DNA of 64,000 nucleotides from contig JBAIZL010000006.1 in the NCBI GenBank assembly GCA_036971475.1, positions 7,386,001 to 7,450,000 on the forward strand, in the 5' to 3' direction. The number at the start of each line of letters is the position of its first letter. Position 1 is the first letter of the stretch. Below the pieces are notes generated by a model. That model ran no database searches. It was not told the DNA's origin and was given only the letters and a program-made list of their open reading frames with translations. Made by a program: the position numbers and the translations under genes. Source of the stretch: Prosapia bicincta (lineage: Eukaryota > Arthropoda > Insecta > Hemiptera > Cercopidae). Below are positions 21,030-59,214 of this stretch, piece after piece.

Positions 21030-21034
21030 GCTGT

Positions 21035-21631
21035 TATTAGTTTTGCATTAATTAATAACATGTGTTTTCTCAGATTACTTAAACAAAAGGTTTTCAAGTG
21101 AACAACACCTTTAAAATCCCCCCCCCCCCCGAGTATTATGCTAGCTGAGTGAAATACTTGGCTAATTTGTTTTTAACGAATTTATGAATTTTTTTTCCTA
21201 AGAGCTAAATAGGTTTTGGTGAAATTACAGGTTTCGATTTTTTAAATCGAATTTCTAGCTTAGGTCATTACCACTGCAGGGCATTTGTATGGACAATGCA
21301 GAAGGAGAGGACAATATATAAAAAGGTAAAATGTCAAAGTGTAAAAGTTTGGATGTCAATGACAACGAGGGAGATATTCTTGAATAGCAACAAATGGGGG
21401 TAAATGAGAACATACGGGATGTCGAAGGGATCAAGTGAATTATCAAAAAATGGCGCAAAAAGGTAAGAAAGGTGGAAGAGTAAGATTAGGGTCACAAACC
21501 CACAAAAATAAATCCATAAAAATAAATTAACTTTTATTAAATTACAAAATTATTAACAATAAGAAAATAAATATTATCGTTTCTATGGTAATACATCAGT
21601 CGAAATACATCAATCAAGAGTTATCACCAAA
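21035..21631 (+). promoter_or_regulatory. Candidate promoter and 5' leader of the micro-exon gene
   Basis: A good TATA box, TATATAAAAAGG (21315-21326), lies ~300 nt upstream of the exon 1 ATG. The leader contains several ATGs, so either it carries upstream frames or part is removed. A GTAAGA donor at 21463 and a CATCAG acceptor ending at 21599 could remove a 137-nt intron. An alternative short first exon starts at the ATG at 21450 (M-A-Q-K, then phase-1 donor). A poly-C run (21119-21130) lies further up. All of this is inference from sequence signals. Confidence 0.3.
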
Positions 21632-21662
21632 ATGAAGTGGTTCAAGTTTATTCGAAAATACT
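21632..21662 (+). CDS. Micro-exon gene, exon 1 (start codon)
   Basis: The ATG in CACCAAAATGA context starts MKWFKFIRKY and one base of the next codon, followed by GTAAGT. Spliced to exon 2, the split codon becomes Cys. The short basic-aromatic N-terminus is not a classical signal peptide. An alternative initial exon exists at 21450-21462 with the same phase. Confidence 0.45.
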
Positions 21663-22374
21663 GTAAGTTAATATTACAAATATATATAAATATGTTTACA
21701 AAAATTAAACTGGGAATCTTTCTCTTACCTTTCCTAGCTTGTTTGTGTAAAACGTACCATAGGAGTCACTCCAATATCTTAATTAGCTCCAGTTAAAATG
21801 ACCCCCTGCAATTGTCGTTGAGATTACCTCCATTAAATTTTTATAAACACCTTGGAAATACATGTAATAAAAAGTATATGCCACAAACTTTTGAAACTAA
21901 AGTTTTCTGTCTTTCGTTAAACAGTTATTCACGGTAATTGTGTAGAACATTTTTACTTTATCACCCTCCAACCATTCGTACCTCATAGATACGCTATTTT
22001 ATCACGAAAGTGTAGGCCTGTACTATTATTCTGCTATCTTAAAAAACAAAACTACTATGCAAAAGTTGTAATCATCTTTATTTCGTGATTGTTTAATTTT
22101 CTATTTATCGTATGTATTTATTTTATATTGTTTATTTGGTAATTTACTGAGCAGAAATAATTCATTAAATGGAACATGTCAAATAAAACTGCAATATTAT
22201 AGGCCACTAAAGCGATATTAAAAGTCTGTAAAATATTTCGACATTAGGTATCGTAAGATTGAGCTAAATATTTCTATTTCTTTATATATCAATAATAAGA
22301 ACCATGTTTACAGTAGGCCTAAACTTTATATATATATAAATTTATATATAAAATATATTTATTTTTAAATTTAT

Positions 22375-22438
<64 letters not shown>

Positions 22439-25400
22439 CCAATAGATCTAACATAGTTCAATTCAAATTTACCTATCTATATTAATTTGTGGAAAATATT
22501 CAATATGAATGTAAAATTAAATTGGTTTGTATTCATACCATTTTGTATATTCTTTACTTAACCTACAAAAATAGTGCACACCGTAGTTAGTACTGAATAA
22601 CCAAAATCATTTTACAAAATTTTGTGTTTTCTTTAGTTCAGTTATAAACAAATACCTTCAAATTTTCCACTTGGACATTACACCTTATTTTAGGTGACAG
22701 GTTCAATTTTTTACTACTGTTATAGAGTTAAAAAAATCAAGTAACATGGAAGCTGCCAGATATTTTCTGAAAGGTATCACTTTGAATGGGATTCGATCAT
22801 CAGTCACCCAGGCTTTAACTTCTTTGACATTATATTAACTAAGTGTGATAAAATGAGCATTGATGTATGTTCTAATTATTTATTTATGTCCGAGCAAACA
22901 TATAAGATAAATGCTTAAATAGGTGTGTAATATAAATAATATTGTACTTACATGATTTAAGACGGTTGGAAAACTTTACTACACTATTATACGTCTTTTT
23001 CTTGATGTCATTTACACTCCCTCTAGGAATTCCAAATTCCGAAGATAGCTTAACCTCATTTTCTCCTTTTCGTAACCGTTGTAGAATGTCGTACTTAACA
23101 GCCAACGTCAAAGTTTTATAATTACCGCTTTTAGGCATTTATTCTTTATATAACCGTATAGTTTGTTATAACAGTATTGTGACGAATTAAAGAAGGTGAC
23201 GAGTTAGAGAGGTTTTACTGCAATTGGATTATCTGTAAGATGAACGAGAAATTAAAAACCATCATACATTTCCAACAATAATTTTTGATTGCTTATCCAC
23301 CTTGAGTATATCTTTAAGTTAAGTACTAGGCCCTTACCTATGCACAAAAGTTCTTTTTTATACGGCCCTTGTTACTGTTTCCGGTTACATTTTCTCGATC
23401 ATACCCATCTCCTTGGTTGTATTTTTGAATTATCACATGACGATACTATAGATATGTTGAAAAAACAAGTTAATTAAGTGTTAAGCCGGAGAATTGATTT
23501 TATAATATACAAAACTAAATAAAAACAATGGTCGAATTTATTGAGGCTTTATAAATAAAAACTGATTCCTCTCAACAAGCAAATACATTATTCTCCAAAC
23601 TATAATTAAAATTCCTAAACACTATTTTAAAATAGAAATAGAAGTATTTGTAAACGTAAAGTTATTGGAAGCCAATAAAACTTTTATACGTGTAAATATA
23701 ATATAAGTCAATAATGGTAAACTTATGTGGTTTGAAGTGTTAGTAACCAAATAACATATTCCTTCGGTGTGTTACAGGTTTGTGTTGGTGCAAAATTAAC
23801 AAGAACAAAAAGAAAGATCTCGGTAAAGTTTAAATTGATACATTTTCTCACCTATCTAGTATATGGGACTATTGCTCCATCATGGCTTCTCTCGCTGCGT
23901 CTTAACTACGTACGCTTTCTCTCGTCTTCTTCTACAAATATTGTTACATTTTCTCCCTTACTCTAGTATATGGGACTATTGCTCCATCATGGCTTCTCTC
24001 GCTGCGTCTTAACTACGTACGCTTTCTCTCGTCTTCTTCTACAAATATTGTTACATTTTCTCCCTTACTCTAGTATATGGGCCTATTGCTCCATCATGGC
24101 TTCTCTCGCTGCGTCTTAACTACGTACGCTTTCTCTCGTCTTCTTCTACAAATATTGTTACATTTTCTCCCTTACTCTAGTATATGGGACTATTGCTCCA
24201 TCATGGCTTCTCTCGCTGCGTCTTAACTACGTACGCTTTCTCTCGTCTTCTTCTACAAATATTGTTACATTTTCTCCCTTACTCTAGTATATGGGACCAT
24301 TGCTCCATCATGGCTTCTCTCGCTGCGTCTTAACTACGTACGCTTTCTCTCGTCTTCTTCTACAAATATTGTTACATTTTCTCCCTTACTCTAGTATATG
24401 GGACTATTGCACCATCATGGCTTCTCTCGCTGCGTGTTAACTACGTACGCTTTCTCTCGTCTTCTTCTACAAATATTGTTACATTTTCTCCCTTACTCTA
24501 GCTCGCTGCGTCTTAACTACGTACGCTTTCTCTCGTCTTCTTCTACAAATATTGTTACATTTTCTCCCTTACTCTAGTATATGGGACTATTGCACCATCA
24601 TGGCTTCTCTCGCTGCGTCTTAACTACGTACGCTTTCTCTCGTCTTCTTCTACAAATATTGTTACATTTTCTCCCTTACTCTAGTATATGGGACTATTGC
24701 TCCATCATGGCTTCTCTCGCTGCGTCTTAACTACGTACGCTTTCTCTCTTCTTCTACAAATATTGTTACATTTTCTCCCTTACTCTAGTATATGGGACTA
24801 TTGCACCATCATGGCTTCTCTCGCTGCGTCTTAACTACGTACGCTTTCTCTCGTCTTCTTCTACAAATATTGTTACATTTTCTCCCTTACTCTAGTATAT
24901 GGGACTATTGCACCATCATGGCTTCCCTCGCTGCGTCTTAACTACGTACGCTTTCTCTCGTCTTCTTCTACAAATATTGTTACATTTTCTCCCTTACTCT
25001 AGTATATGGGACTATTGCACCATCATGGCTTCTCTCGCAGGGTGTTAACTACGTACGCTTTCTCTCGTCTTCTTTTACAAATATTGTTACATTTTCTCCC
25101 TTACTCTAGTATATGGGACTATTGCAACATCATGGCTTCTCTCGCTGCGTCTTAACTACGTACGCTTTCTCTCGTCTTCCTCTACAAATATTGTTACATT
25201 TTCTCCCTTACTCTAGTATATGGGACTATTGCACCATCATGGCTTCTCTCGCTGCGTCTTAACTACGTACGCTTTCTCTCGTCTTCTTCTACAAATATTG
25301 TTACATTTTCTCCCTTACTCTAGTATATGGGACTATTGCACCATCATGGCTTCTCTCGCTGCGTCTTAACTACTTACGCTTTCTCTCGTCTTCTTCTACA

Positions 25401-28400
25401 AATATTGTTACATTTTCTCCCTTACTCTAGTATATGGGACTAGAGCTCTCTGTCGTGACTTCTCTCCCAGTGTCTTAACTAAGTACGCTTTCTCTCGTCT
25501 TCTTCTACAAATATTGTTACATTTTCTCCCTTACTCTAGTATATGGGACTATCGCTCTCCGCCGTGGCTTCTCTAGCTGCGTCTTAACTACGTACGCTTT
25601 CTCTCGTCTTCTTCTACAAATACTGTTACATTTTCTCCCTTACTCTAGTATATGGAACTAGAGCTCTCTGTCGTGACTTCTCTCGTTAAGTCCTAACTAC
25701 GTACGCTTTCTCTCGTCTTCTTCTACAAATACTGTTACATTTTCTCCCTTACTCTAGTATATGGAACTAGAGCTCTCTGTCGTGACTTCTTTCACTGCGT
25801 CTTAACTACGTACGCTTTCTCTCGTCTTCTTCTACAAATATTGTTACATTTTTTCCCTTACTCTATTATATGGGTCTATCGCTCTCCCTAATGACTTCTC
25901 TCGCTGCGTCTTAACTACGTACGGTTTCTCTCGTCTTCTTCTACAAATATTGTTACATTCTCTCATTAACTCTAGTATGTGGGTCTATCGCTCTCTGTCG
26001 TGACTTCTCTCGCTGCGTCTTAACTACGTACGCTTTCTCTCGTCTTCTTCTACAAATACTGTTACATTTTCTCCCTTACTCTAGTATATGGGACTATCGC
26101 TCTCCGTCGTGGCTTCTCTCGCTGCGTCTTAACTACGTATGCTTTCTCTCGTTTTCTTCTACAAATATTGTTACATTCTCTCATTAACTCTAGTATATGG
26201 GTCTATCGCTCTCTGTCGTGACTTCTCTCGCAGCGTCTTAACTACGTACGGTTTCTCTCGTCTTCTTCTACAAATATTGTTACATTTTCTCCCTTACTCT
26301 AGTATATGGGTCTATCGCTCTCCGTCATGACGTCTCTCTCAGTGTCTTAACTACGTACGGTTTCTCTCGTCTTCTTCTACAAATATTGTTACATTTCCTC
26401 CCTTACTCTAGTATACAGGACTATCGCTCTCCGCCGTGGCTGCTCTCGCTGCGTCTTAACTACTTACGCTTCTCTCTCGTCTTCTTCTACAAATATTGTT
26501 ACATTTTCTCATTAACTTTAGTATATGGGACTATCGCTCTCCGTCGTGGCTTCTCTCGCTGCGTCTTAACTACGTACGCTTTCTCTCGTTTTCTTCTACA
26601 AATATTGTTACATTCTCTCATTAACTCTAGTATATGGGTCTATCGCTCTCTGTCGTGACTTCTCTCGCAGCGTCTTAACTACGTACGGTTTCTCTCGTCT
26701 TCTTCTACAAATATTGTTACATTTTCTCCCTTACTCTAGTATACAGGACTATCGCTCTCCGCCGTGGCTTCTCTCGCTGCGTCTTAACTACTTTCGCTTC
26801 TCTCTCGTCTTCTTCTACAAATATTGTTACATTTTCTCATTAACTTTAGTATATGGGTCTATCGCTCTCCGTCATGACTTCTCTCGCTGAGTCCTAACTA
26901 CATACGCTTTCTCTCGTCTTCTTCTACAAATATTGTTACATTCTCTCATTAACTCTAGTATATGGGTCTATCGCTTTTCGTCATGACTTCTCTCGCTGAG
27001 TCCTAACTACATACGCTTTCTCTCGTCTTCTTCTACAAATATTGTTACATTCTCTCATTAACTGTAGTATATGGGACTAGAACTCTCTGTCGTGACTTCT
27101 CTCGCTGAGTCCTAACTACATACGCTTTCTTTCGTCTTCTTCTACATATGTTGTTACATTTTCTCCCTTACTCTAGTATATGGGTCTATCGCTCTCCGTC
27201 ATGACTTCTCTCGCTGAGTCCTAACTACGTACGCTTTCTCTCGTCTTCTTCTACAAATATTGTTACATTTTCTCATTAACTCTAGTATATGGGACTAGAG
27301 CTCTCTGTCGTGACTTCTCTCCCAGTGTCTTAACTATGTACGATTTCTCTCGTCTTCTTCTACAAATATTGTTACATTTTCTCCCTTACTCTAGTATACG
27401 GACTATCGCTCTCCGTCGTGGCTTCTCTCCCAGTGTCTTAACTACGTCCGCTTCTCTCTCGTCTTCTTCTACAAATACTGTTACATTCTCTCATTAACTC
27501 TAGTATATGGGGCTATTGTTCCGTCATAGTTTCTCTCGCTGTGTCTTAACTACGTACGCTTTCTCTCGTCTTCTTCTACAAATATTGTTGCATTCTCTCA
27601 TTAACTCTAGTATATGGGTCTATCGCTCTCCGTAATGACTTCTCTCGCTGAGTCTTAACTACGTACGCTTTCTCTCGTCTTCTTCTACAAATATTGCTAC
27701 ATTTTCTCATTAACTCTAATATATGGGACTAGAGCTCTCTATGGGACTAGAGCTCTCTATGGGACTAGAGCTCTCTGTCGTGACTTCTCTCCCAGTGTCT
27801 TATCTACGTACGCTATCTCTCGTCTTCTTCTACTAATATTGTTATATACTGTCATTAACTCTAGTATACTGGACTATCGCTCTCCGACTTTCTCTCGTCT
27901 TCTTCTACAAATATTGTTACATTTTTTTCCCTTACTCTTTTATATGGGTCTATCGCTCTCCCTAATGACTTCTCTCGCTGCGTCTTAACTACGTACGGTT
28001 TCTCTCGTCTTCTTCTACAAATATTGTTACATTCTCTCATTAACTCTAGTATGTGGGTCTATCGCTCTCTGTCGTGACTTCTCTCGCTGCGTCTTAACTA
28101 CGTACGCTTTCTCTCGTCTTGTTCTACAAATACTGTTACATTTTCTCCCTTACTCTAGTATATGGGACTATCGCTCTCCGTCGTGGCTTCTCTCGCTGCG
28201 TCTTAACTACGTACGCTTTCTCTCGTTTTCTTCTACAAATATTGTTACATTCTCTCATTAACTCTAGTATATGGGTCTATCGCTCTCTGTCGTGACTTCT
28301 CTCGCAGCGTCTTAACTACGTACGGTTTCTCTCGTCTTCTTCTACAAATATTGTTACATTTTCTCCCTTACTCTAGTATACAGGACTATCGCTCTCCGCC

Positions 28401-31400
28401 GTGGCTTCTCTCGCTGCGTCTTAACTACTTACGCTTCTCTCTCGTCTTCTTCGACAAATATTGTTACATTCTCTCATTAACTCTAGTATATGGGTCTATC
28501 GCTCTCCGTCATGACGTCTCTCTCAGTGTCTTAACTACGTACGCTTTCTCTCGTCTTCTTCTACAAATATTGTTACATTTTCTCATTAACTTTAGTATAT
28601 GGGTCTATCGCTCTCCGTCATGACTTCTCTCGCTGAGTCCTAACTACATAAGCCTTCTCTCGTCTTCTTCTACAAATATTGTTACATTCTCTCATTAACT
28701 CTAGTATATGGTTCTATCGCTTTTCGTCATGACTTCTCTCGCTGAGTCCTAACTACATACGCTTTCTCTCGTCTTCTTCTACAAATATTGTTACATTCTC
28801 TCATTAACTGTAGTATATGGGACTAGAGCTCTCTGTCGTGACTTCTCTCGCTGAGTCCTAACTACATACGCTTTCTTTCGTCTTCTTCTATATATGTTGT
28901 TACATTTTCTCCCTTACTCTAGTATATGGGTCTATCGCTCTCCGTCATGACTTCTCTCGCTGAGTCCTAACTACGTATGCTTTCTCTCGTCTTCTTCTAC
29001 AAATATTGTTACATTTTCTCATTAACTCTAGTATATGGGACTAGAGCTCTCTGTCGTGACTTCTCTCGCTGAGTCCTAACTACATACGCTTTCTCTCGTC
29101 TTCTTCTACAAATATTGTTACATTCTCTCATTAACTCTAGTATATGGGTCTATCGCTTTTCGTCATGACTTCTCTCGCTGAGTCCTAACTACATACGCTT
29201 TCTCTCGTCTTCTTCTACAAATATTGTTACATTCTCTCATTAACTGTAGTATATGGGACTAGAGCTCTCTGTCGTGACTTCTCTCGCTGAGTCCTAACTA
29301 CATACGCTTTCTTTCGTCTTCTTCTATATATGTTGTTACATTTTCTCCCTTACTCTAGTATATGGGTCTATCGCTCTCCGTCATGACTTCTCTCGCTGAG
29401 TCCTAACTACGTACGCTTTCTCTCGTCTTCTTCTACAAATATTGTTACATTTTCTCATTAACTCTAGTATATGGGACTAGAGCTCTCTGTCGTGACTTCT
29501 CTCGCTGAGTCCTAACTACATACGCTTTCTCTCGTCTTCTTCTACAAATATTGTTACATTCTCTCATTAACTCTAGTATATGGGGCTATTGTTCCGTCAT
29601 AGCTTCTCTCGCTGTGTCTTAACTACGTACGCTTTCTCTCGTCTTCTTCTACAAATATTGTTACATTCTCTCATTAACTCTAGTATATGGGTCTATCACT
29701 CTCCCTAATGACTTCTCTCCCAGTGTCTTAACTATGTACGATTTCTCTCGTCTTCTTCTACAAATATTGTTACATTTTCTCCCTTACTCTAGTATACGGA
29801 CTATCGCTCTCCGTCGTGGCTTCTCTCCCAGTGTCTTAACTACGTCCGCTTCTCTCTCGCCTTCTTCTACAAATACTGTTACATTCTCTCATTAACTCTA
29901 GTATATGGGGCTATTGTTCCGTCATAGCTTCTCTCGCTGTGTCTTAACTACGTACGCTTTCTCTCGTCTTCTTCTACAAATATTGTTGCATTCTCTCATT
30001 AACTCTAGTATATGGGTCTATCGCTCTCCGTAATGACTTCTCTCGCTGAGTCCTAACTACGTACGCTTTCTCTCGTCTTCTTCTACAAATATTGCTACAT
30101 TTTCTCATTAACTCTAATATATGGGACTAGAGCTCTCTATGGGACTAGAGCTCTCTATGGGACTAGAGCTCTCTGTCGTGACTTCTCTCCCAGTGTCTTA
30201 TCTACGTACGCTATCTCTCGTCTTCTTCTACTAATATTGTTATATACTGTCATTAACTCTAGTATACTGGACTATCGCTCTCCGTCGTGGTTTCTCTCCC
30301 AGTGTCTTAACTACGTCCGCTTCTCTCTCGTCTTCTTCTACAAATACTGTTACATTCTCCCATTAACTCTAGTATGTGGGGCTATTGTTCCGTCATAGCT
30401 TCTATAGCTTTGTCTTAACTACGTACGCTTTCTCTCGTCCTCTTCTACAAATATTGTTACATTTTCTCCCTTACTGTAGTATATGGATCTATCGCTCTCC
30501 GTCATGACTTCTCTCGCTGAGTCCTAACTACGTACGATATCTCTCGTCTTCTTCTACAAATATTGTTACATTTTCTCCCTTACTCTAGTATATGGGTCTA
30601 TCGCTCTCCGTCATGACTTCTCTCGCTGAGTCCTAACTACGTACGCTTTCTCTCGTCTTCTTCTACAAATATTGTTACATTTTCTCCCTTACTCTAGTAT
30701 ATGGGTCTATCGCTCTCCGTCATGACTTCTCTCGCTGAGTTCTAATTACGTACATTTTTTTCTCTCGATGTTGGTGATTGCTAAGAGTACGTAGGCTATT
30801 AGGGAGTTTGGATCTTGCTAAGTATACGTAGGCTATTAGGGAGTTTGCTGCGTGCTAAGTGTACGTAAGCTATTAGGGAGTTTGCTGCGTGCTAAGTGTA
30901 CGTATGCTATTAGGGAGTTTGCTGCGTGCTAAGTGTACGTAGGCTATTAGGGAGTTTGCTGCATGCTAAGTGTACGTAGGCTATTAGGGAGTTTGCTGCG
31001 TGCTAAGTGTACGTAGGCTATTAGGGAGTTTGCTGCGTGCTAAGTGTACGTAGGCTATTAGGGAGTTTGCTGCATGCTATGTGTACGTAGGCTCTTAGAA
31101 ATATTGGAAGTTGTTAGTAGACCTTGATAAAACATTGATTTAATGCTTTTATACATGTTAAGTGTAGATAATAGTATGTATGTAAATAAATGTAAGGAAA
31201 TTGTTAAATAGTTTGTCTAACATTGCCGTAAGTTTTATTGAGCCGTTATAGGAACGTATAAATAAATTTTGTGACTTATTATATAACTCATATACAATTT
31301 ATCTATTTTGAATGACGATATCGAATTTCCCCAGTCTCATATATCTACTTTAACGCTTGAATATGACCTCAACAAGGAATGTCACTTATTAGTGGAGGAA

Positions 31401-49400: not shown

Positions 49401-52400
49401 TTATCTATTTTAGATGACGATATCGAAATTCCCCAGTCTCATATATCTACTTTAACTCTTGAATATAACCTAACCGAAGAATGTCAGTTATTAGTGGAGG
49501 AACAGTTAAAAACTGAAAGGGGTAAGTTTAAACTAAAATTTGACAGTTTACTTCAGTTTATTATTAAATATAGTTATTCTAAGCAATAGTTAGCAAAACG
49601 TTCATTACATTTGTTTTGTAAGTTTTTTACTATATTTGAAAGCTTCACCGGGATAACTTACACCGGAACAGCCTAACAATGTATAGGATTTGACAACTAG
49701 ATATCAAGACGTGTTTGACGTCTAGAGTGATTCTAGAGGGAGAAGTGATGATATAAACAGCATAGAAACTGAAGACGTTATGCCTATCCGTCAGGAACCC
49801 AAGGAGAATATCTTTAGCGTAGAATGAAACATTGGATTCAGTCATTAAAGAGATGGATAGTGACTGTATATCTGAACTGCCATTCACTCCAATAAAAAAC
49901 TCACACGTTGTACTGGTAAATCGTATCGTCCAGATTCTGGGATTATTTCCGATTTTGTAACTATATACTGATCGAAGATAGTAATGCGTTACCCCAGATA
50001 GACTGCACCTTAAACATACTGTAGTGGTGTAACGTGTTTTCGACACTTACCATGAGAGCGGATACTGGCAGATAGATGTCGAAATGAGCCGGCCTTCATT
50101 CAAACATGATATACCTATGTACATTCGATCCTTAAACTATGCATTTATTACAGGGGATTTGTCCAAGGTTTCGTAACTTTAGACAATATAGCTTACTATC
50201 CCAAGTCTAAGCTACAGTTTTTATTGACTGAGCATTAAAATTTTCAGGGATAAGATAAAAGAATTCTTTGGGTTGTAAAGCTGTAATGTTACGTCTTTTA
50301 GGCGACACGTCGCTCTTTCTCCAATTACGAAAATGCTGACTAGCCTTCAAGAGAACCTTGCGATGATTATTGTGCCCACAATGAAGTCAATAAATGTTTC
50401 GTAAATGAAACAACTTAGATCCATTGGAATTAATCATAGCTATCTATAAACCAAAAGAGTTACTTTAACTTAGACCATCTTATAAATTGGAGTTTTAAAG
50501 TAAAATGAGAAATCAAAAGATGGAAAGAATAGCTAGAGGAAAGCGGCTAGTTGGTCGAGATATGTGACGCGTCATTGGAGTCAATGTGTATCTACTGTGA
50601 TGGATGACCGCCCGTTCTGGGGGATAATAGGTGATAGTATATGTGATATTGAGCGACATCAAATAAAAACTAAGCTCACGTTAAATAAGATGACAACAAA
50701 GATATTGAAGGTCCTGTTTTATGGATGATATAGTGGCCACTTTGGAATAGATAAAACATTGAAGACAATTGTTCTACTAGGTGAACCTGAAGGAAGATAT
50801 ACAATTTATGAGGGAAATAACGGTACCGCCAGAAGAGGAAAATCTCCAAAGAGAAAGTAAACGTGATTGCTACCTTGTATTATGAGGATTCGATATGAGT
50901 ACTGTTAGCTGTACATAACATGTCTTTCAACATATGCAAGGTTTATTTTGACTTTTATAGGCTACATGAGTAAGAGGTTGGAGGCTAACGCTCTGGTGAA
51001 ACCAGAAGCTGTAACCATAACGGATACATAGTTTTAAGTCAAATAATGGGTCGTTTGTTTGTTTCCTCGTTGCTGCATTCAAAACTAAAATGTAACTCCG
51101 AGTTAACACAACTTTCTAGGACTTTCGCAGCGCTCTTTTTTTTAAAAAACCAGGGCTAGACAGGCGCCCTCTAGATAGGTGCTGTTTTATAGAGAATATT
51201 ATCTTACAAACTATTTACTATTTGGCATCAAATCGGATTTGGATACTGCTGTATTAGACTACGTAACTAACCTGCAGATTCATTCCGATATCTAGGATTC
51301 CTGCAATATAATGAAGAAAAGATATGATCTGAAGGAGAAAGCAGGGTACTACAAACCAGGAAATCTCATTTGCCTATATAACATTCGAAAACACTATAAA
51401 CTCTTCAACTTTTAAAAGTAAAGACATAGCCCGAATGAGGTTTTAAAGATATCATCTACCGGAAAAAGAGAAAACAAAAATAGTAATAAAATATTATGCA
51501 TTTTTAGCCCCCATTTCTTTGCAAGGATATCAATACTACTCAGAAAAACCAGGCGTTTAGGGCATTGCATAAAGAATTTGAGATACTATCATGCTGCAAG
51601 GGTGTGACGCCCAGCAGCGGATCGGCCTGGAAGGGAGGAAATACCGGTCGTGAAAGCAATCGACAAAGATTTTTTTTTGCGAAAACACATGACGATGCCT
51701 TGGCACACTGCGAAAGGGAAAACCTAAGAACGTTTTGTGGACCTGAGATTATCATTTTCGGTTTGGGATAAAGAAGCTTGCTATCCTAAGTCTGGTCTGG
51801 AGTTTTGATGGATTGAACTTAATATATTCCTACAGGCACAGTGCGAGTCCAGTAAACATGACTGACTATGGTGAGAAGAAGTCTTTTAAGTAAGGGCAGT
51901 GAATCGCTGCGATACATTTAGATACTTAGTATGGAATTTGTATACAATTGAGCTGTTCCAGACACTGCTAATAACCAGACTAAATTATGCGATCTGGCTC
52001 TTGAATTTGTCCCGACTATGGACATAGCCCTTATAAAGAGTTTGACCCAACTACAGAAAGCGACAAGTTAAACAAAAAATTACGGTTTACTTTACTATGT
52101 TTTACTAAATATAGTAATTTACTAGTTTATTACTAAAACATTTTAAATGGTTTTAATAGTTTATTTATCTGTTTTAGATGAACATGATCAAACAGCTGAA
52201 GAAAAGAAAAAAGAACGAGGTAAATTGAAAATTAAAAATGTTCGTAGGTTGGAATTGTTAACTAAAATACATAAATAATAGTTCTGAACAAGATATACAA
52301 GCTTTTTACAAACATAATATTACCTACTGTGTATTTTGTAAACTATATCTCTCATGGTTTCTATTTTAGTCACGTATAATGGTGGAGTGCTTTTATTTTT

Positions 52401-52807
52401 TTTGAAATACAGGCTGAAACAGAATGTTTCGGACATTATTCAAATTATTTTCATATAGTATTCTGTATTATTGGTAAAATGTGTTGCTAAGTTATTGGCC
52501 TTAAAAAATTGTAAGGAATAGGCGACATGTCTCAATAAAATACCTGTTTGTTTGTTACCGAAGGCACCATTCATGATGGGAATTTGCAACAAGATTTTCT
52601 TGCCGCATTGGTGAATTAACCATATTTATATACCTTAAATATATAAGTGAATATCCATTGATCACTTAAATTGTAGGAATACTTGAGATGTTTTTTTTAA
52701 ATAAGATATTTTATTAAATCTTTCCATATATTCAAGTTTTTTCTGTACTTTTACTCAGAGTATAATTCTTTACGTAATATTATAGAAAGCCAAACACACA
52801 CACTCCC

Positions 52808-52859
<52 letters not shown>

Positions 52860-55375
52860 ATATTTGTATGTAAATTCATTCAGTTACTTCATTTATAAAT
52901 TTAATATTCATATTTACTGTACATCATTTTTTCATTTTTCAAATTCCTTTTGTTGTAGTGCGTAGGCTACAATTGAGGAGGGAAGAGAGAGAGTTTTATA
53001 TTACACCTTCATTAGAAACAATTCCAGAAGAAAATGAAGAGACCCTCAGAGCCTGTAAGAAAAAATATTTATTCTTCTTCCCATTTATAGAAAAAATATT
53101 TCCTTTATTTGTTACTCATTTTATAATTCATAAATAATTTGGTTTGTTATGGGTGTACACTCGAAGTTTGATCAGGGGTTTTACGATTATAAAACGGCCG
53201 TTCGACACAAGATAGTTGACAATATTAAACATGAAAAGAATATTATAGTGCATTTACTTCACTTTTAAAATACTATTGCACTCATTACAATCATTTAAAA
53301 CTTTTGAAAATTCAATAAAGACGTCATGCCTCCCCGGTACAACCATTGGAGGTTATCTCAAGCGAACCACGAATAATCTGTTTCTTTCCAATGTCGAAAA
53401 GTCCTGCAATAAAAAAAATCAATGAGCTGAACGCCAAAGACGGGGACTACAATCTAGAAAATCTCATTTCGCTCTATAACTCTTGAAAGCGCCTTTATTA
53501 AGCTTTAAAATTCAAATCATGGGGCGTATGAAGTTCTTAAGAAGATCAATCAATATCATCTACTAGAGAGTTAGACACCCAAAACGGAAACAAAAAATCA
53601 TGCACTTTATTCGACAAAGTCCTTACAAGGCCAAGGTGGCATGCATAGGATAGCAACTTAAAAGAGACGCACAGGTCGTGATAGCTGTTTAGAACTATTT
53701 TGTTTTCAATAACATACAGCGATTACGTTGTTCTAGATGACTGTGTAAGATATGTGAAAACGTAGAGATGTCAGGGATAGTAACAACGGTCTTTCGAAAC
53801 ACGTTTTACTGAGATGCATTTTCATACATTTTACCAATCGATTTTCATACTATTTCCTTTATCAACATATGAAGGTGAAAGGATTGGTGAACACATGTAG
53901 GTGGGTCGAGTCTAAATTTCTCCAAAAATCAGAGGCTGTAATCATAGCGGAAATATTGTTAAGACAACTTGTAAACCGATTTTGTGATGCATTCACATCT
54001 AGGAAGGGACTTGAGAGTCAATACAAATTTCAAAGATGTACGAAGCGCTTGGGCATCCGAAGAACCAGGATTATACAGGCTTTTTTATAGAGAATTTTTC
54101 TGTCACAGCGATATACTATTTAGGATTAAACCGGATGAAGATAATGCAGGGTAAGACTAAGTCGTCAATCTTGGGGAGAAATTGCTCGCAGGATAAGCCT
54201 GGTCGTGTTCGTTCCATATCGAGGATTACTGCATTATAATGATGAAAAGCTATGAGTTGAAGGCGAAAGAATAAGACTCCAAACCACGAAATCTTTTTTG
54301 AGTATATAACATCCGAAAAAGCCATGGATTCACTCCCAAGCCGGTAAAGTAATTGGAATTCCCTTATGAGGTTCTATAGGGAATAAATGATATCATCTTC
54401 ATGATAAGGAGACGTTCAAAGGACAAACTAATCATGCATTTAAAGCAATTCGCAACTCTCAAGGGGATTAATAACTTTGTCCTGGAAGAGAGAAGCAAAG
54501 GTCGTGACAGCAGTCTACAGCGATATTTTTGCGATTACGATGGCCTAGCCGGCTCTGTGTGTGAACACTTGAAAGTGTCTGGGATAGTAACGACGGACTT
54601 TGGAAAGACGTTTTACTGAATTGAAAATCTGGAGGGTTAAGGCCAGCGCATCGGAATACCAATATAACTATAAAATAATGAGCACAATCTTTAATACATG
54701 ATGAAAAGTTCCATTGTTAGCAAAGACCGATAAATCAAACCCTTGGAGAAAGCTTTGCGCACCTACGGGAATATCATTTTAGGACGGGGATCAAGTAACT
54801 TTCTATCACTAAACAAGAATTGATAGTTTGAACAAGCGATATGATAGTTTGAACTGTAAAATTGGGAGAAGTATAATAAAAGAAATCTCCAAAGACTCAG
54901 GTGTCGACATCGTGGTCTGCATCTTCAACCGAAGGACCTCTAACGAAGATCGAAACACTAAATATATTCCAACAGGCACAATCCGAGTCCTGTAGCCAGG
55001 AATGTCTGTGCTGACATCAAGGGTTTTAAGAAGGCCAGTGGAAACGTTACAAGAAATTTAGATACTCATTATATAATTCTTATACAATTTGTCTGTTATA
55101 GACAAGCATAACCCAACTTAAATGTGCGATTTAACTCTTGAGTTTAACCTAACTTCAAAATCGACCTACCTGACGAATTCGACCAAACTACCGAAATAGA
55201 TAGGTTTAAATACTAATTTAAGGTTTATTTCAATATGCTTTAGTAAATACAAATTTTGTAAACAATAGTTACCAATTAGTATATTACATTTGACATGTTA
55301 TTTATAAATTGTTTATCTGTTTGAAATTGCTATATTTAAAATGTCATATCTATCTATCAATCTCTATCTCATTTT

Positions 55376-55413
<38 letters not shown>

Positions 55414-56836
55414 TGTATATATGTATATTTACCTATAGGTAGTAAAATGTTCGAAATTTGACTTTTTTGGTTGAAGGAGAAATCCAAAAAGGATGCTGTT
55501 ATTTTTAGTTTGCTGTAAGAAAGTGATATCGTACCAAATGATTGAATTTCAGATGTGTCTAATTTTGAATTGTGTTAGAGTATATTGCACCAAAGTGAAA
55601 TTATCTAATAGCAATTGTGTAAAAATAATAAGTAATAGACAGTTAGGGCGTTAGGTCTAAATAATATATATAAGGCCTACTTAAAGACGTCAATCTCAAA
55701 AAATCTTTGTCAGCGATTTATCGAAACACCTAAGCACGCTATTTTGCGATGAATCATTGAAACACTGTCCGACAGACACCCATCACAGAGTTCTATGGCT
55801 AAGTACTGTATGCACCTGATGAGTCCCAATACGAGACAAAGAGGGTCACCACTTGTCTAAAAAGAAAAAATGGGCTAAGAATTTTGATCATGTTTTGTAA
55901 AAAATATATAATATTGAAGTTGTTAAAAATTGTGTTGTAATTTAGCTTTTTAACATTTACAACCTAATAAATTTCATATACATCTTGTGCCACATATATA
56001 TATACATATTATTTCAGCCATAAAAATATGGTAAAGTAATAAGCTATAATTAGGTCACTCAACAAAATAATTAGGCTGATTTTAATGACTAGGCTCGTGA
56101 CCCAACATCGCGAGAACTCGAGCACACTTTCAAAAAAACACTTCAAGTAACGCAAGTCCTCTTGGGTTGACTAATTACCTGATTAATAATGGGAACATTC
56201 GTGATTAAATAATGTTTACTTTGGACTTATGAAGAAGTTGCTTTTCTGAAACTGTCGTGCTTTTTATTTAATCCATTACTTTTTGTCCCTATTCCTATAA
56301 GGCGTGTATCTGGTAGACCTTTTCATTACAGACTTTTCCTGGGAGACGTAATTCCCCTATTATTCCCCTCTTAAAACTATCCAAAGTCTTATATGGATAC
56401 ATTACTTTTATCCTCATCCTACCCCAGAATCACTCAGCTTCCACACGGGTATACAATAATCCTTCGTAGCGTCAGTCAGAAAAATATTGCGGACTCATTG
56501 GTTTTCTCATTACTGAAATTACTAAATGCAAGATAGTGAAAGAAAATTTGCCATACATACTACCATACGTAATTTATGAAAATTGCTGACAACTTCGGTT
56601 TTACGCCTCGTCCATCTCATTTAGCAACTCGACTCAAGACAGTTTTGACAATTCACTTACAACAACAGGTCAGCTTTTTCTTCATGAAGGGGGGGCATTT
56701 TTTGTTAAATTTTTTTAAATTAGTAGTTTTCGAGATCAATATTTTATAATAAAATGTTCTATAAACAATTTTACTTTACATTATATTCCCTAATCAATAT
56801 TTTATTAAGGGTCTGTATTTTATAAAGTATATTTTC

Positions 56837-56868
<32 letters not shown>

Positions 56869-58735
56869 TTCCATAGCAACAAGTTTTTCCGTTTATTTCC
56901 CACAATATCAAGTTTTTAAATTACAATGGCTGAGTTAATTATATCCCATTGTTCAAGTTATTTGCCATACGTTGGTTTTCATAGTTAGGTTATACATGAA
57001 TAAAGATCTATTTCATAGTAATCGAAAAAGGAAGCCCAAAACGCAAAAGAACGGAAGATAAAGTTTTTGCTATAATGTCTGAATATGTTGCATTTGTAGT
57101 TTATACCTATACTGAAGTTCTTGGTCGAAATTTAAAACATTTTAAAATATAACTTTTATAAAATAAATATTAAAACACAAATATATTAGGTATTTATTAA
57201 AATAAATATCTCTTTTATAAATATACTGTTATAAAACTTCTATAGATAAATGTACTGTTGTCTATAAATATTTTATGACCAGCATGTAAATTATAACACC
57301 ACTGTAAACAGTAACTTACTGTTAACATACACTATAACACAACACTATATACTGTCTTTGGTCTTTTCTTAGTTTTTTGTCGAATAAAAACGTCGTTTAT
57401 ATTGTTCTGAGTTCTGACATTGTTTCATGATCATTGTTGTTTAGTGACATTGTGTTCTATGCTTTAAACTTCCTCACGCCCTTCTTTTTAACTCGTCCTT
57501 TTTGCTGTATTTGATAAAACTGTAATATTCCAAAGCAGGACTAGGTATTGTGAGCCCTTAACCGATGCGTTTCCTAGCTTGATTAGAGAACTGATCTGAC
57601 CCAAAATCCTTCCTTCTTTATCAATACCGAAAATTAGATTGTCAAATTAATCAATCCACGCAGAAAGAACAAAAAACATTTACAAGTAAGCAACAATAGT
57701 TGTCACTATCATTCTTCAACAGAATTTTGCTTTGAACAATCCTTCACCTCTCTTGCAACACAGCCAGGTAGTATTAGCTACACACATATTAGAACCCAAA
57801 ACTAGATGTGAAAATTTCGATTATATTTTTAACACGATATATGTGGTGTTGAGCCATTCAAGTATAACGTTCTATTGTACAACCAAAACAAGAAAAAACA
57901 AAATATATTTGTCTGTAAAAGCAAACATGATTTATAAAAACAAAAAATACGCTATGTATAGAATCCAGAAAGCAAATGACGTCAGAGGCTTTTTGTATAG
58001 ATATGAGTACTAATAATACCGAGCAGGAAGCACGAAACTGCCGTAAGCAATATGTGGAATAACCGTTAGCTATGTGTTTGTGTAAATAAATTGTAAGTGT
58101 GTATTTGTATTGAGAATTAATATTGAAAAACTGCTGAGGTAGTATATGGCGCTTCTATCCATCACTAACAAAATTCTCATTATTTTATTTCTGGCTCCCC
58201 GTCACAGAAACAATTATCAGTATTAGACTACGTAATATTAACCACTCAAATACTAAGCCTAACTGCGATTGCTAAGGTGAAATTACCATTCGAATTGGGT
58301 TTTACTTACTAACACGCATCAGTTTTGCACGCAAGATACTAGCACGTATCGTTCTTCCTTTCATCGTATTCTAGTTGTGTTTCTTTTATCTTTCTTGTTT
58401 TTCTAACTACTTTTTGTTATTTCTTTTCTCTATTCTTCTAGTTTTCTTCTTTCCTTAGCATCATTTTCTAACCATCTTCTTTGTTTTTGTAACTCCTTTT
58501 CTTTCTTTTTTCTCTATTTCTTGTGTTTTTTTAATCTTTCTTATTTATTTTTCTTAATCGGTTTTTCACAAAACTTATAATTTATCGATGTTGGACTTCG
58601 ACATTGTTATATTTTGTTTATATGCAATTTGTTTAACTTATATTTATCTTAATTTTCTAAAGGAGATTTTGTTTTTCAGATTTTAACCAAGATACTGAGA
58701 ACTGTTGCCCGTCATCCTCCAAATTCCCCGGCTAA
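21632..58735 (+). CDS. Predicted micro-exon gene, whole span (exon 1 - exon 2 - [A-B]n - A - C - D - terminal exon)
   Basis: The gene is inferred from short plus-strand exons with GT/AG boundaries whose phases all agree. Exon 1 ends in phase 1; exon 2 (45 nt), A (108), B (39), C (42) and D (96) are each multiples of three and start with two and end with one base of a split codon; the terminal exon accepts phase 1 and stops. Using A2-B2-A3-B3-A4 the coding length is 672 nt (223 residues). Adding or skipping A or B copies keeps the frame. The product would begin basic and cysteine-rich and continue acidic and polar, with no recognised domain. Introns range from ~0.7 to ~14 kb and contain satellites and decayed gypsy DNA. 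Other exons may be missed. Not a known family to me. Confidence 0.5.
21663..22377. other. Intron sequence with no other feature
   Basis: AT-rich; nothing recognised besides short TA-rich stretches at its right end. It falls in the predicted first intron. Confidence 0.5.
22378..22434. repeat. (TA)n microsatellite
   Basis: About 28 uninterrupted TA units, flanked on the left by shorter TATATA stretches. Confidence 0.95.
22952..23138 (-). pseudogene. N-terminal fragment of a Tigger/pogo-like transposase (CENP-B type HTH)
   Basis: The frame begins MPKSGNYKTLTLAVKYDIL and continues with RLRKGENEVKLSSEFGIPRG and SVNDIKKK, the psq/CENP-B N-terminal helix-turn-helix of Tigger and jerky-like transposases. 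The match ends at a CAT|GTAAGT sequence (donor at 22951-22950), after which the frame reads AT-rich filler, so it may be the first exon of a domesticated or spliced copy. No second DNA-binding domain or DDE catalytic domain was found to the left. Most likely a truncated element; a terminal repeat lies 60-80 nt upstream of its start. Confidence 0.7.
23197..23220 (-). mobile_element. Terminal inverted repeat of the Tigger-like element
   Basis: On the minus strand CAGTAAAACCTCTCTAAC begins the element, close to the CAGTRRAACCTC ends of Tigger/pogo transposons. The expected flanking TA is not intact. No matching opposite end was found nearby. Confidence 0.65.
23221..23777. other. Intron sequence with no other feature
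   Basis: Non-coding AT-rich DNA between the Tigger-like end and exon 2. The 62-codon frame at 23289-23477 has no supporting features. Confidence 0.5.
23778..23822 (+). CDS. Micro-exon gene, exon 2
   Basis: 45 nt between TGTGTTACAG and GTAAAG, phase 1 at both ends. Its 14 complete codons read LCWCKINKNKKKDL. Joined to exon 1 it creates the cluster Y-C-L-C-W-C followed by a lysine-rich stretch, a layout often associated with palmitoylated, membrane-adjacent N-termini (inference). The 107-bp satellite array starts 25 nt after the donor. Confidence 0.5.
23848..30755 (+). repeat. Satellite array of 107-bp units (about 65 copies)
   Basis: The unit has TAGTATATGGGACTATTGC, CATCATGGCTTCTCTCGCTG, TTAACTACGTACGCTTTCTC, GTCTTCTTCTACAAATATTG and TTACATTTTCTCCCTTACTC in order, with a period of 107. 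Units at 23860-25430 are nearly identical apart from one with a deletion near 24500. From 25430 on they are diverged into subtypes (CTATCGCTCTCC, CTAGAGCTCTCTGTCG and others) arranged in higher-order repeats: a marker unit recurs after 2074 bp (25971 and 28045) and a triplicated CTATGGGACTAGAGCTCT segment after 2398 bp (27721 and 30119). It lies in the predicted intron after exon 2. Confidence 0.97.
30780..31098 (+). repeat. 37-bp satellite, array I (about 8.5 copies)
   Basis: The unit starts GCTAAGTGTACGTAGGCTAT and ends TAGGGAGTTTGCTGCGT. It abuts the end of the 107-bp array with only ~25 nt between, and ends about 215 nt before exon A1. Confidence 0.97.
31312..31419 (+). pseudogene. Exon A, copy 1 (acceptor site lost)
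   Basis: 108 nt, open in the phase-1 frame, ending in the donor GTAAGT. It corresponds position for position to A2-A4, but the preceding bases are TTTTGA instead of TTTTAG, so the acceptor AG is missing. It would probably be skipped. The coding frame itself is intact and reads QSHISTLTLEYDLNKECHLL in its middle. Confidence 0.6.
31541..32310 (+). pseudogene. Decayed Ty3/gypsy pol (pre-RT and RT), unit 1
   Basis: With stops and frame changes ignored, this stretch resembles the linker and RT of Ty3/gypsy pol. The linker matches are seen best in unit 2 (LTPEQ..., RYQDVF, IETEDVMPIRQEP), followed by VIKEMDSDCIF and a block before the palm. It is non-functional and lies in the intron between A1 and B1. 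Confidence 0.6.
32443..32480 (+). pseudogene. Truncated A-like exon remnant (delta-A), unit 1
   Basis: DKDYDPTTEC is encoded here. It resembles the 3' ends of the decayed A-type exons further right (EFDPTTES at 52033, DEFDQTTEI at 55175). No acceptor or donor is preserved. It lies about 140-175 nt before exon B1. Confidence 0.35.
32618..32656 (+). CDS. Exon B, copy 1
   Basis: 39 nt between TTACCTGTTTCAG and GTAAGT, phase 1-1. It reads MPEYENWDIPGP in complete codons. It differs from B2 and B3 at two codons, both non-synonymous. With A1 unusable, exon 2 could splice straight to B1 without changing frame. Confidence 0.5.
33360..34520 (+). pseudogene. Decayed retroelement sequence, unit 1
   Basis: A second pre-RT-like fragment (33930-34050, with DKTDVVQDHIETEDA out of frame) is followed by an integrase C-terminal-like stretch (KKMKEIYDLHAREEGY near 34340) as in Ty3/gypsy integrases, where RMKxRYDLKAN...GF precedes VWLYNP. 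Stops are frequent. The 78-codon frame at 34973-35209 has no recognised domain and is disrupted in the other units. Confidence 0.5.
35421..37625 (+). repeat. 37-bp satellite, array II (about 60 copies)
   Basis: The longest of the four arrays. It is mostly identical 37-bp units, with recurring variants: units missing CT (TTTGTGCGTG) and TTAGTGAGTTTGGTGCGTG with GCTAGGTG. Variants recur at regular spacing, which indicates local multi-unit amplification. Confidence 0.97.
37838..37945 (+). CDS. Exon A, copy 2
   Basis: 108 nt between TTTATCTATTTTAG and GTAAGT, phase 1-1. The complete codons include DDIQIPQSHTSTLTLEFDL and then TKECHLLVEEQLKTES. No family is recognised; it is acidic-polar with one Cys. 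Together with copies 1, 3 and 4 it shows substitutions but no indel or stop within 108 nt, although the adjoining introns differ by indels. Confidence 0.55.
38067..38810 (+). pseudogene. Decayed Ty3/gypsy pol (pre-RT and RT), unit 2
   Basis: The best-preserved copy of the relic. In shifting frames, with stops, it shows LTPEQ, RYQDVFDV, IETEDVMPIRQEP, VIKEMDSDCIFDPPFTP, a DSNASSKIDCTLN block and CNVFSTLYQESGY, matching gypsy RT motifs (VIKEM, the DDTLD block, WFSTLDLKSGYWQ). A later LQENLAMIIVP stretch sits where the YLDD region is expected. It is dead, and ancestral to the amplification because every unit has it. Confidence 0.65.
38973..39010 (+). pseudogene. Truncated A-like exon remnant (delta-A), unit 2
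   Basis: Encodes DKDYDPTTEC just upstream of B2, as in unit 1. No splice sites remain. Confidence 0.35.
39150..39188 (+). CDS. Exon B, copy 2
   Basis: 39 nt between CTGTTTCAG and GTAAGT, phase 1-1, reading IPDYENWDIPGP. The intron from A2 is 1204 nt (1198 and 1205 nt in units 1 and 3). Confidence 0.55.
39950..41080 (+). pseudogene. Decayed retroelement sequence, unit 2
   Basis: Counterpart of 33360-34520. It includes the paired GCCGCCATGTGGAGATACAC motif (39980-40025), a second pre-RT-like fragment and the integrase C-terminal-like stretch near 40915. No intact frame. Confidence 0.5.
41991..42647 (+). repeat. 37-bp satellite, array III (about 17-18 copies)
   Basis: Same unit as the other arrays, with GTGCGGGCTAAG and TTAGAGAGTTTG variants recurring at a spacing of about four units. 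Confidence 0.97.
42862..42969 (+). CDS. Exon A, copy 3
   Basis: 108 nt, TTTTAG acceptor and GTAAGT donor, phase 1-1, open frame. It differs from A2 at five codons: three replacements (P to L, T to I, E to D) and two silent. Confidence 0.55.
43091..43860 (+). pseudogene. Decayed Ty3/gypsy pol (pre-RT and RT), unit 3
   Basis: Same relic as in units 1, 2 and 4 at the same distance from exon A. Stops and indels are only partly shared among copies. Confidence 0.6.
43998..44035 (+). pseudogene. Truncated A-like exon remnant (delta-A), unit 3
   Basis: Encodes DTDYVQTTEC upstream of B3, aligned with the remnants in units 1 and 2. Confidence 0.3.
44175..44213 (+). CDS. Exon B, copy 3
   Basis: 39 nt, identical in sequence to B2, with TTTCAG acceptor and GTAAGT donor, phase 1-1. 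Confidence 0.55.
44994..45387 (+). repeat. 98-bp tandem repeat, about four copies
   Basis: GCCGCCATGTGGAGA recurs at 44994, 45092, 45190 and 45288, exactly 98 bp apart, each followed by CAGACAGTTCCAGG or a close variant. Units 1 and 2 have only one and a fraction. Open frames on both strands here are by-products of the repeat. Confidence 0.93.
45499..47400 (+). repeat. Tandem duplication of about 0.96 kb in unit 3
   Basis: GAAACCGTGCTACTAGAACC starts both halves (about 45499 and 46462). Each half contains the pre-RT-like fragment and the integrase C-terminal-like KMKEIYDL stretch (near 46200 and 47160). The halves differ by many substitutions. Confidence 0.85.
48242..49199 (+). repeat. 37-bp satellite, array IV (about 26 copies)
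   Basis: It differs from arrays I-III in being largely alternating: a standard unit (GCTGCGTGCTAAGTG) followed by a variant unit (GGTGCGTGCTAGGTG), giving a 74-bp dimer. A TACGTTGG variant and a TGTTCG variant recur at a longer spacing, implying a higher-order repeat of roughly eight to ten units. Confidence 0.96.
49414..49521 (+). CDS. Exon A, copy 4
   Basis: 108 nt, TTTTAG acceptor and GTAAGT donor, phase 1-1, open frame. It is the most diverged of the four (LEYNLTEECQLLVEEQLKTER). No exon B is found downstream; the next matching exon is C at 52178. Confidence 0.55.
49643..50400 (+). pseudogene. Decayed Ty3/gypsy pol (pre-RT and RT), unit 4
   Basis: Fourth copy of the RT relic. The minus-strand frame across it (49645-50046) is a shadow: it has no motif and is broken in the other units. 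Confidence 0.6.
50511..51900 (+). pseudogene. Decayed Ty3/gypsy pol, integrase part (older relic)
   Basis: SGHFGIDKTLKTI (50732-50771) resembles the integrase zinc-finger region (GHxGxxKTL). 50960-51100 contains a degraded match to the integrase core (seen more clearly at 53900). 51310-51470 encodes KKRYDLKEKAGYYKPGN-like sequence (integrase C-terminus). Frames are broken throughout. The 68-codon frame at 51565-51771 has no recognised domain. Confidence 0.55.
51962..52071 (+). pseudogene. Decayed A-type exon (A5)
   Basis: It follows GAGCTGTTCCAG and reads DLALEFVPTM in the phase-1 frame, aligned with STLTLEFDLT of exon A. After an apparent frame change the 3' end reads KEFDPTTES, and the donor GGTAAG of exon A is CGACAAG here, so it cannot splice normally. 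Only ~110 nt separate it from exon C, without the gypsy relic found in units 1-4. Confidence 0.55.
52178..52219 (+). CDS. Micro-exon gene, exon C (B-like)
   Basis: 42 nt between TTTATCTGTTTTAG and GTAAAT, phase 1-1. It reads EHDQTAEEKKKER, highly charged. Its flanks resemble those of exon B (similar pyrimidine tract; downstream ACAAGCTTTTTACA), so C and B are probably diverged copies of one exon. Confidence 0.5.
52808..52860. repeat. (AT)n-(GT)n microsatellite
   Basis: A short AT tract followed by about 18 GT units, in the intron between exons C and D. Confidence 0.93.
52959..53054 (+). CDS. Micro-exon gene, exon D
   Basis: 96 nt between TTCCTTTTGTTGTAG and GTAAGA, phase 1-1, open. Complete codons read RRLQLRREEREFYITPSL and then ETIPEENEETLRA: a basic start and an acidic end, probably helical. 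GC content and codon variety are higher than in the flanking AT-rich intron, which supports a coding role. Not found elsewhere in the window. No family recognised. Confidence 0.55.
53869..54120 (+). pseudogene. Ty3/gypsy integrase core relic
   Basis: WVES...EAVIIAEILLRQLVNRF followed by SRKGLESQYKFQ and RLGIRRTRI matches, with substitutions and one frame change, the gypsy integrase core (W-V-E, E-A-x-T-I/V-A, L-V-x-x-F, RNFES, CEALGIxKTRTTP). The catalytic Asp region is altered. The integrase C-terminus relic follows at 54240-54470. Confidence 0.75.
55102..55195 (+). pseudogene. Decayed A-type exon (A6)
   Basis: It follows CTGTTATAG and aligns with exon A (TTTAACTCTTGAGTTTAACC against TTTAACTCTTGAATTTGACC). 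The phase-1 frame meets TAA after six codons and the donor position reads ATAGGT. The 3' end encodes DEFDQTTEI in another frame. Confidence 0.55.
55379..55411. repeat. (TC)n microsatellite
   Basis: About 16 TC units. Confidence 0.93.
56842..56868. repeat. (AT)n microsatellite
   Basis: About 13 AT units. Confidence 0.9.
58680..58735 (+). CDS. Micro-exon gene, terminal exon
   Basis: The best acceptor of the region, GATTTTGTTTTTCAG, is followed by a phase-1 frame reading FNQDTENCCPSSSKFPG and TAA. Joined to exon D the split codon is TAT (Tyr). The 17-codon tail has a Cys pair, echoing the Cys-rich N-terminus. A T-rich stretch follows, and a possible polyadenylation signal AATAAA lies at about 59247. 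Confidence 0.4.
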
Positions 58736-58740
58736 TCCTT

Positions 58741-59168: not shown

Positions 59169-59214
<46 letters not shown>

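What the first reader, a model, noticed from the sequence alone, without database searches (positions are those of the whole stretch)
21632..58735. A candidate gene built of symmetric phase-1 micro-exons, with no recognisable family
Reading the plus strand for splice signals yields exons of 31 (coding), 45, 108, 39, 42, 96 and 56 nt. Each has a pyrimidine-AG acceptor and a GTAAGT-like donor, and each is open in the same phase (1-1). The split codons join without a stop. Such all-symmetric micro-exon architecture lets any exon be skipped or repeated without frame loss; it is known from schistosome MEG genes and aphid bicycle genes (the latter with a different phase). The predicted product matches neither by motif that I can see.
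Basis: partly seen in the sequence, partly recalled or inferred. Interest (0 to 1): 0.9.

Follow-up and report, generated by a model that had tools for sequence, protein, structure and literature searches.

The report
Frame-safe mini-exon gene in mobile-like blocks
A gene-like set of small exons that each keep the reading frame, with one exon pair copied several times in a row, recurs at 14 or more places in one genome inside look-alike blocks tens of thousands of bases long that likely spread as mobile DNA; its predicted protein matched no known family, and its length would be able to change without breaking the message.

Summary
The same exons recur in 30 clusters in this 2.2-Gb genome, 14 with E3+E6+E7. 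Splice sites and frame are kept in 28 of 29 other E3, 17 of 18 E4, 5 of 5 E2 and 7 of 7 E6 copies; five chance candidates score 3/15, 1/5, 4/5, 4/5 and 12/104. dN/dS is 0.13-0.50. At three of five other loci read, E5 is a 45-nt array; every array read holds a stop. Introns and flanks are shared too, up to a left end found upstream of 11 of the 14 clusters and a right end shared by two loci. So the gene sits in large units that probably moved as blocks. No relative was found. Expression is untested.

The parts
21632..21662 (+). E1, first coding exon (ATG; MKWFKFIRKY + first base of a codon)
   Evidence: same exon and donor at C146 (98% with flanks), the only other locus where it could be compared
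23778..23822 (+). E2, 45 nt, Cys/Lys-rich (with the base from E1: CLCWCKINKNKKKDL)
   Evidence: AG/GT and frame kept in 5 of 5 other copies (4 loci)
31312..31419 (+). E3a, 108 nt, open frame but acceptor is GA instead of AG
32618..32656 (+).
   Evidence: 17 of 18 other copies intact
37838..37945 (+).
   Evidence: 28 of 29 other copies intact (the 29: 3 in the window, 23 from other loci, 3 distant); dN/dS 0.22 over 28 copies
39150..39188 (+).
   Evidence: 17 of 18 other copies intact; lowest local divergence in the unit profile
42862..42969 (+).
44175..44213 (+).
49414..49521 (+). E3d, 108 nt, last unit; no E4 found after it in the window
52178..52219 (+). E5, 42 nt; single at the window, C199 and C357, a 45-nt array at C146, C313 and C260
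   Evidence: whole exon with its own acceptor at 2 of 2 single-copy loci; the other three of the 5 of 5 are last units of arrays
52959..53054 (+). E6, 96 nt
   Evidence: 7 of 7 other copies intact (5 loci + 2 short fetched pieces)
58680..58735 (+). E7, last exon, 53 coding nt + TAA
   Evidence: open to the same stop in 5 of 5 other copies read
31104..50704 (+). tandem units of about 5-6.5 kb, each with E3, the first three with E4
23834..31098 (.). satellites before the first unit: 107/109-bp array (to 30753) and 37-bp array (30779-31098)
35418..37618 (.). 37-bp satellite in the repeated unit; more at 41988-42642 and 48241-49200
1..64000 (.). most of the window, apart from the two LTR elements, lies in the dispersed unit; left end 531 bases outside (C333:7385470), right end estimated about 1.9 kb outside and not read

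Best explanation
This is a multi-copy family of frame-keeping small exons (every internal exon in the window a multiple of three, every intron in phase 1) whose tandemly copied exon pair would let a predicted protein gain or lose repeats without losing frame, and which sits in large blocks with a shared left end that likely spread as mobile DNA. Shown: exon identity, splice-site and frame conservation across paralogues, dN/dS below 1, tandem copying of the E3-E4 pair, repeat growth inside E5, and shared introns and flanks up to common ends. Inferred: that the transcript is spliced as E1-E2-(E3-E4)n-E3-E5-E6-E7; that blocks moved by a transposition-like step and not by ordinary segmental duplication; that the product is an acidic repeat protein (236 aa, pI 4.4 for the 11-exon model of the window), probably held at the inner side of a membrane by its Cys/Lys-rich N-terminus, with length set by the number of E3-E4 repeats. 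Its work is a guess: I favour a scaffold or binding protein whose number of binding sites is tuned by repeat number.
For: 143 exon matches in 30 clusters on 8 contigs, 14 with E3+E6+E7. Splice sites and frame intact in 28/29 (E3), 17/18 (E4), 5/5 (E2), 7/7 (E6) other copies, against 3/15, 1/5, 4/5, 4/5 and 12/104 for five other candidates. Five of five further short pieces that I chose (57-94% aa identity) keep the exact 108- or 96-nt exon, open, with AG/GT (they are also counted). dN/dS 0.13-0.50; third codon positions vary 2.2-2.5 times as much as first and second in E3. Introns and flanks align at about 83-96% between chromosomes. Three loci with different flanks share one left end, two share one right end. 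The left-end 24-mer lies upstream in the right orientation of 11 of 14 full clusters, although the genome has 201 such sites in 2.2 Gb. First and last E3 units of C146, C313 and C260 group by position and middle ones by locus, two of them identical: blocks moved with their arrays and arrays grew again afterwards.
Against: No RNA evidence. All four E5 arrays read, at three loci, hold at least one in-frame stop, and one also a 44-nt unit that shifts frame: those copies work only if the last unit's own TTTTAG is used as acceptor, or not at all. Window E3a has lost its acceptor; 6 of the 143 matches contain a stop. The window's own E3 units do not group by position with those of the other loci. 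A scan for selected coding stretches ranked E6 first of 2291 windows but had non-exon windows next, and only E5 and E3a besides among its 30 best. No transposase in the part searched (20 of 130 open frames of at least 50 aa put to Pfam). No target-site duplication could be read. The left-end sequence also belongs to an older repeat; most of the roughly 100 places listed of 201 are far from this gene. E3 synonymous divergence is about four times that of its flanks, which the model does not explain.
Confidence: 0.5

Rival explanations
1. An ordinary orphan host gene family spread by segmental duplication; the shared ends are repeats at which copies break and recombine, not the ends of a mobile unit.
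For: The left-end kilobase had 341 first-look candidates (40 scored) and its 24-mer 201 sites, most of those listed away from this gene. The left ends of two gene-bearing loci, the window (87%) and C260:258.8M (88%), are no closer to C146's than unrelated copies are, while seven others are at 97-98%. No transposase found.
Against: The same left terminus upstream of 11 of 14 full clusters on several contigs, different flanks right beyond it, and a common right terminus in two loci fit a defined unit better.
Confidence: 0.3
2. A dead or non-coding repeat with exon-like strings; the conservation only reflects recent copying.
For: The pattern alone is close to chance; units are recent copies; several copies are damaged, the E5 arrays above all.
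Against: dN/dS below 1 in all five exons tested; three E3 copies at 57-62% aa identity keep exon length, frame and splice sites; the larger control sets decay.
Confidence: 0.1
3. A remote branch of bicycle-type secreted effector genes (same intron phase, small exons).
For: Same intron phase as bicycle genes (PMC9168663, passages) and many small same-phase exons.
Against: The published structure-only classifier gives 0.069, 0.017 and 0.009 for three models against 0.72, which I take as its cut-off; no hydrophobic signal-peptide core by a simple hydropathy test; internal exons up to 108 nt.
Confidence: 0.06

Closest known systems
Aphid bicycle genes (PMC9168663 and PMC13041983, passages only)
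   Same: Many small internal exons that nearly all start at codon position 2 (intron phase 1); large orphan family; a repeat-built giant member (megacycle) is described
   Different: Fails the bicycle structure classifier; no evident signal peptide; longer exons; here the gene lies in dispersed blocks with shared ends. CYC motif and saposin-like fold were not tested.
Schistosome micro-exon genes, MEG (PMC5825161 and PMC8293314, passages only)
   Same: Symmetric exons that can be skipped without frame loss; expansion linked to transposable elements is proposed there
   Different: MEG exons are 6-36 bp over about 80% of the coding region; here 0 of 9 internal exons of the 11-exon model are that short. 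MEGs encode signal peptides.
Mobile elements that carry genes, for example Helitron/Helentron elements with internal satellites (recalled, no call)
   Same: Defined ends, internal tandem arrays, carried gene, many copies
   Different: No helicase, transposase or integrase of its own found in the part searched; very large; ends lie next to (CA)n and (TG)n runs

Membership tests
bicycle genes | internal exons start at codon position 2 | tested here: met
bicycle genes | passes the published gene-structure classifier (0.72, taken as cut-off) | tested here: not met
   0.069, 0.017, 0.009 for 7-, 11- and 10-exon models; 0.37, 0.12, 0.07 with gene length set to 5 kb
bicycle genes | N-terminal signal sequence | tested here: inconclusive
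   most hydrophobic 9-mer of the first 25 residues averages 0.69 (Kyte-Doolittle); no signal-peptide program at hand
bicycle genes | CYC motif | not tested
   motif spacing was not taken from the paper
bicycle genes | saposin-like fold | not tested
   no structure job was run
schistosome MEG | about 80% of coding region in symmetric exons of 6-36 bp | tested here: not met
   smallest internal exon 39 nt
schistosome MEG | signal peptide, secreted or membrane-anchored | tested here: inconclusive
   hydropathy only
mobile element | sharp common ends with different flanks | tested here: met
   left end at 3 loci (C333, C146, C313), right end at 2 others (C199, C260); no locus had both flanks read
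mobile element | target-site duplication | tested here: inconclusive
mobile element | own transposase or integrase | tested here: inconclusive
   none above a Pfam cut-off among 20 of 130 open frames of at least 50 aa; four sub-threshold hits, one of them CENP-B_N (E 0.006)

The most novel reading that the evidence does not exclude
A new class of giant mobile unit, tens of kilobases long, whose cargo is a symmetric-exon gene kept by selection: the unit spreads the gene between chromosomes while exon-pair copying inside it makes protein-length variants at each landing site without breaking frame.
Probability: 0.33. Interest if true: 0.85.

Novelty: new variant of a known kind. Interest (0 to 1): 0.6.

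Why it matters
All-symmetric small-exon gene families are rare and known mainly from parasite and gall effectors. In this one the exon pair has visibly been copied of late (two units identical over the roughly 500-700 bases compared, beside units about 93-95% alike), the loss of one acceptor can be seen to leave the frame intact, and the gene travels in large blocks. That makes it testable whether symmetric exons are favoured because the DNA around them is unstable, and whether large mobile units can carry and diversify intron-bearing genes.

Tried and rejected
The 7-exon product against Pfam (0 families at E up to 10), PDB sequences (3 chance-level hits, best E 0.41) and 5.8 billion predicted proteins (none); the protein collection again with a longer composite (none). 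A scan for further selected coding stretches put E6 first; the next window (53905, plus) lies in an old open frame that I read as a worn integrase piece (own reading, no Pfam hit), so I did not add it. Inverted repeats between left and right ends: nothing convincing beyond the (CA)n/(TG)n runs (the right ends were read later and compared by eye). Paper searches for similar cases: bicycle/aphid/microexons, micro-exon/symmetric/effector (41), microexons/salivary/planthopper (52), phase 1 introns/small exons/venom (53), giant transposon/insect/cargo (81), tandem exon duplication/transposable element (122). I saw their listings and passages of four papers, no whole text; nothing in what I saw describes this family. 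No structure was predicted.

Not reached: searches with the right end and with the E1 region were sent but not answered; a search for mitochondrial genes to name the species was planned and never sent.

Full report
Setting. The window is C333:7386001-7450000 of a 2.2-Gb genome in 361 contigs. The species is not known to me. It holds a Gypsy element (about 6.5-13.1 kb, plus) and a BEL/Pao element (about 15.1-21.0 kb, minus), by Pfam domains; BEL/Pao elements are known from animals (recalled).

The observation. All seven exons exist at the stated coordinates, every internal exon a multiple of three, every intron in phase 1, with one open frame of 138 codons. By pattern alone this is little above chance: 18 phase-1 candidates on the plus strand, 12 on the minus strand, 10.2 +/- 3.2 in 40 shuffles.

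It is a family. A six-frame search of the genome with the product gave 143 matches (150 of 151 candidates scored, so a lower bound; E1, E2 and E5 are too short to appear on their own); 6 of the 143 contain a stop. Grouped at 35 kb they form 30 clusters on 8 contigs; 14 have E3, E6 and E7. Of 64 E3 matches I read the DNA of about 30. Splice sites and frame are kept in 28 of 29 other copies (E3), 17 of 18 (E4), 5 of 5 (E2) and 7 of 7 (E6). Fourteen of the 18 scan candidates were tested (four nested ones left out); the five that are not exons of this gene score 3 of 15, 1 of 5, 4 of 5, 4 of 5 and 12 of 104, the last inside a satellite array and the second over a TG run. The two at 4 of 5 show that five recent copies alone would not discriminate; E3 and E4 carry the argument. 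Three E3 copies at 57-62% aa identity and two E6 copies at 81 and 94%, picked by me, all keep exon length, frame and borders (counted again). Averaged pairwise dN/dS is 0.22 (E3, 28 copies), 0.30 (E4, 19), 0.24 (E6, 6), 0.13 (E2, 6) and 0.50 (E7, 6); pairs are not independent. E1 is supported by one other locus only.

The missed exons. In the window E3 occurs four times and E4 three times, in tandem units of about 5-6.5 kb. E3a has TTTTGA in place of TTTTAG, so it is probably not used; since all exons are symmetric, the frame survives. Full clusters show one to six E3 matches. In a tree of 20 E3 units from five loci with 300-base flanks, first units of C146, C313 and C260 group together, last units of the same three group together, and their middle units group by locus, with two C313 units identical and two C260 units 99.9% alike; the window's units and the single C199 unit do not follow position. 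So, at least among three loci, arrays moved as blocks and were extended again afterwards.

E5. At the window, C199 and C357 it is a single 42-nt exon with its own acceptor. At C146, C313 and C260 it is a 45-nt array (DEHDHTAEEKKKDVL, 3 to 9 units, two arrays at C260). All four arrays hold an in-frame stop and one a 44-nt unit. Each unit is preceded by TTTTAG, so the last unit could still be spliced in as a normal 42-nt exon; this is a guess. This is the strongest sign of decay in the family.

The block. Introns and flanks align between loci at about 83-96% over most of the window apart from the two LTR elements, which are absent at C146. Homology ends on the left at the same base in C333, C146 and C313, each with its own flank and a (CA)n run just outside, and on the right at the same point in C199 and C260, followed by a (TG)n run and different flanks. 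From these I estimate blocks of about 43 kb (C146), 52 kb (C313) and 66 kb (C333 with its insertions); the right ends of these three were not read. From left end to E7 the 11 clusters span 22 to 60 kb. The left-end 24-mer occurs at 201 sites with up to 3 mismatches (reversed control 0; about 100 places listed) and lies upstream, in the right orientation, of 11 of the 14 full clusters and of one cluster with E3 only; the other three (C199, C357, C79:64 Mb) may have unlisted copies or none. Its first kilobase is an older dispersed repeat (40 of 341 candidates scored, 82-100% identity for the long matches). So either the block is a large mobile unit with that end, or the repeat is a break point used by segmental duplication. 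I favour the first, at modest odds.

The product. The 11-exon model gives 236 aa, pI 4.4, very hydrophilic; the N-terminus MKWFKFIRKYCLCWCKINKNKKK has no signal-peptide core by hydropathy. A membrane tether by acylated cysteines next to lysines is an inference. No relative was found in Pfam at E up to 10 or among 5.8 billion predicted proteins, and nothing better than E 0.41 in PDB sequences; the collection may hold few spliced animal proteins.

Comparison. PMC9168663 (passages only) states that almost all bicycle internal exons start at codon position 2; that is intron phase 1, the phase here. With the coefficients printed there, our models score 0.069, 0.017 and 0.009 against 0.72. PMC5825161 and PMC8293314 (passages) give MEG exons as 6-36 bp with signal peptides, and describe transposable elements near MEGs as a likely cause of their expansion. 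The family works like these (symmetric exons), but I do not file it in either.

Other coding content. A scan for synonymous excess over the aligned unit (2291 windows) ranked E6 first, but non-exon windows came next and only E5 and E3a were also among the best 30, so it neither proves the other exons nor excludes further genes. Twenty of 130 open frames of at least 50 aa gave no Pfam hit above cut-off.

Unexplained. E3 third positions vary more (0.156) than its flanks (0.056), and synonymous divergence is about four times that of the flanks. Homogenisation of introns between copies, with old exon classes kept apart, would do it; this was not tested.

Noticed in passing
window 6544-13098: Gypsy element inserted in the unit; absent at C146, where the two sides meet with a 4-base overlap, as for a 4-base target duplication.
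   Followed up: partly
window 15049-21029: BEL/Pao element absent at C146; a copy 99% identical over 913 bases sits at another point of the C260 unit.
   Followed up: partly
L029:1619-1972 (minus): Open frame with a BIR (inhibitor of apoptosis) domain, E 9.6e-23, outside the C146 unit to its left.
   Followed up: no
window 22887-23138 (minus): CENP-B_N-like fragment in intron 1, below the Pfam cut-off (E 0.006); may be an old pogo/Tigger piece.
   Followed up: partly
window 53758-54087 (plus): Open frame that reads to me like a worn retroelement integrase, no Pfam hit; strong synonymous excess.
   Followed up: partly
C333:7385470 (531 bases left of the window) and 201 sites genome-wide: Left-end terminus beside (CA)n runs belongs to a repeat with about 200 sites, most of those listed without this gene nearby.
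   Followed up: partly
window 1-4861: The left part of the unit contains two diverged head-to-tail copies of the same 2-3 kb stretch.
   Followed up: no
L044:8592-9866; L040:950-2174: C199 has two inverted E2 copies, and C260 has two inverted E5 arrays with a piece of E7 near one.
   Followed up: no
window 37838-37945 and copies: E3 third codon positions and synonymous sites vary more than the neighbouring introns.
   Followed up: partly
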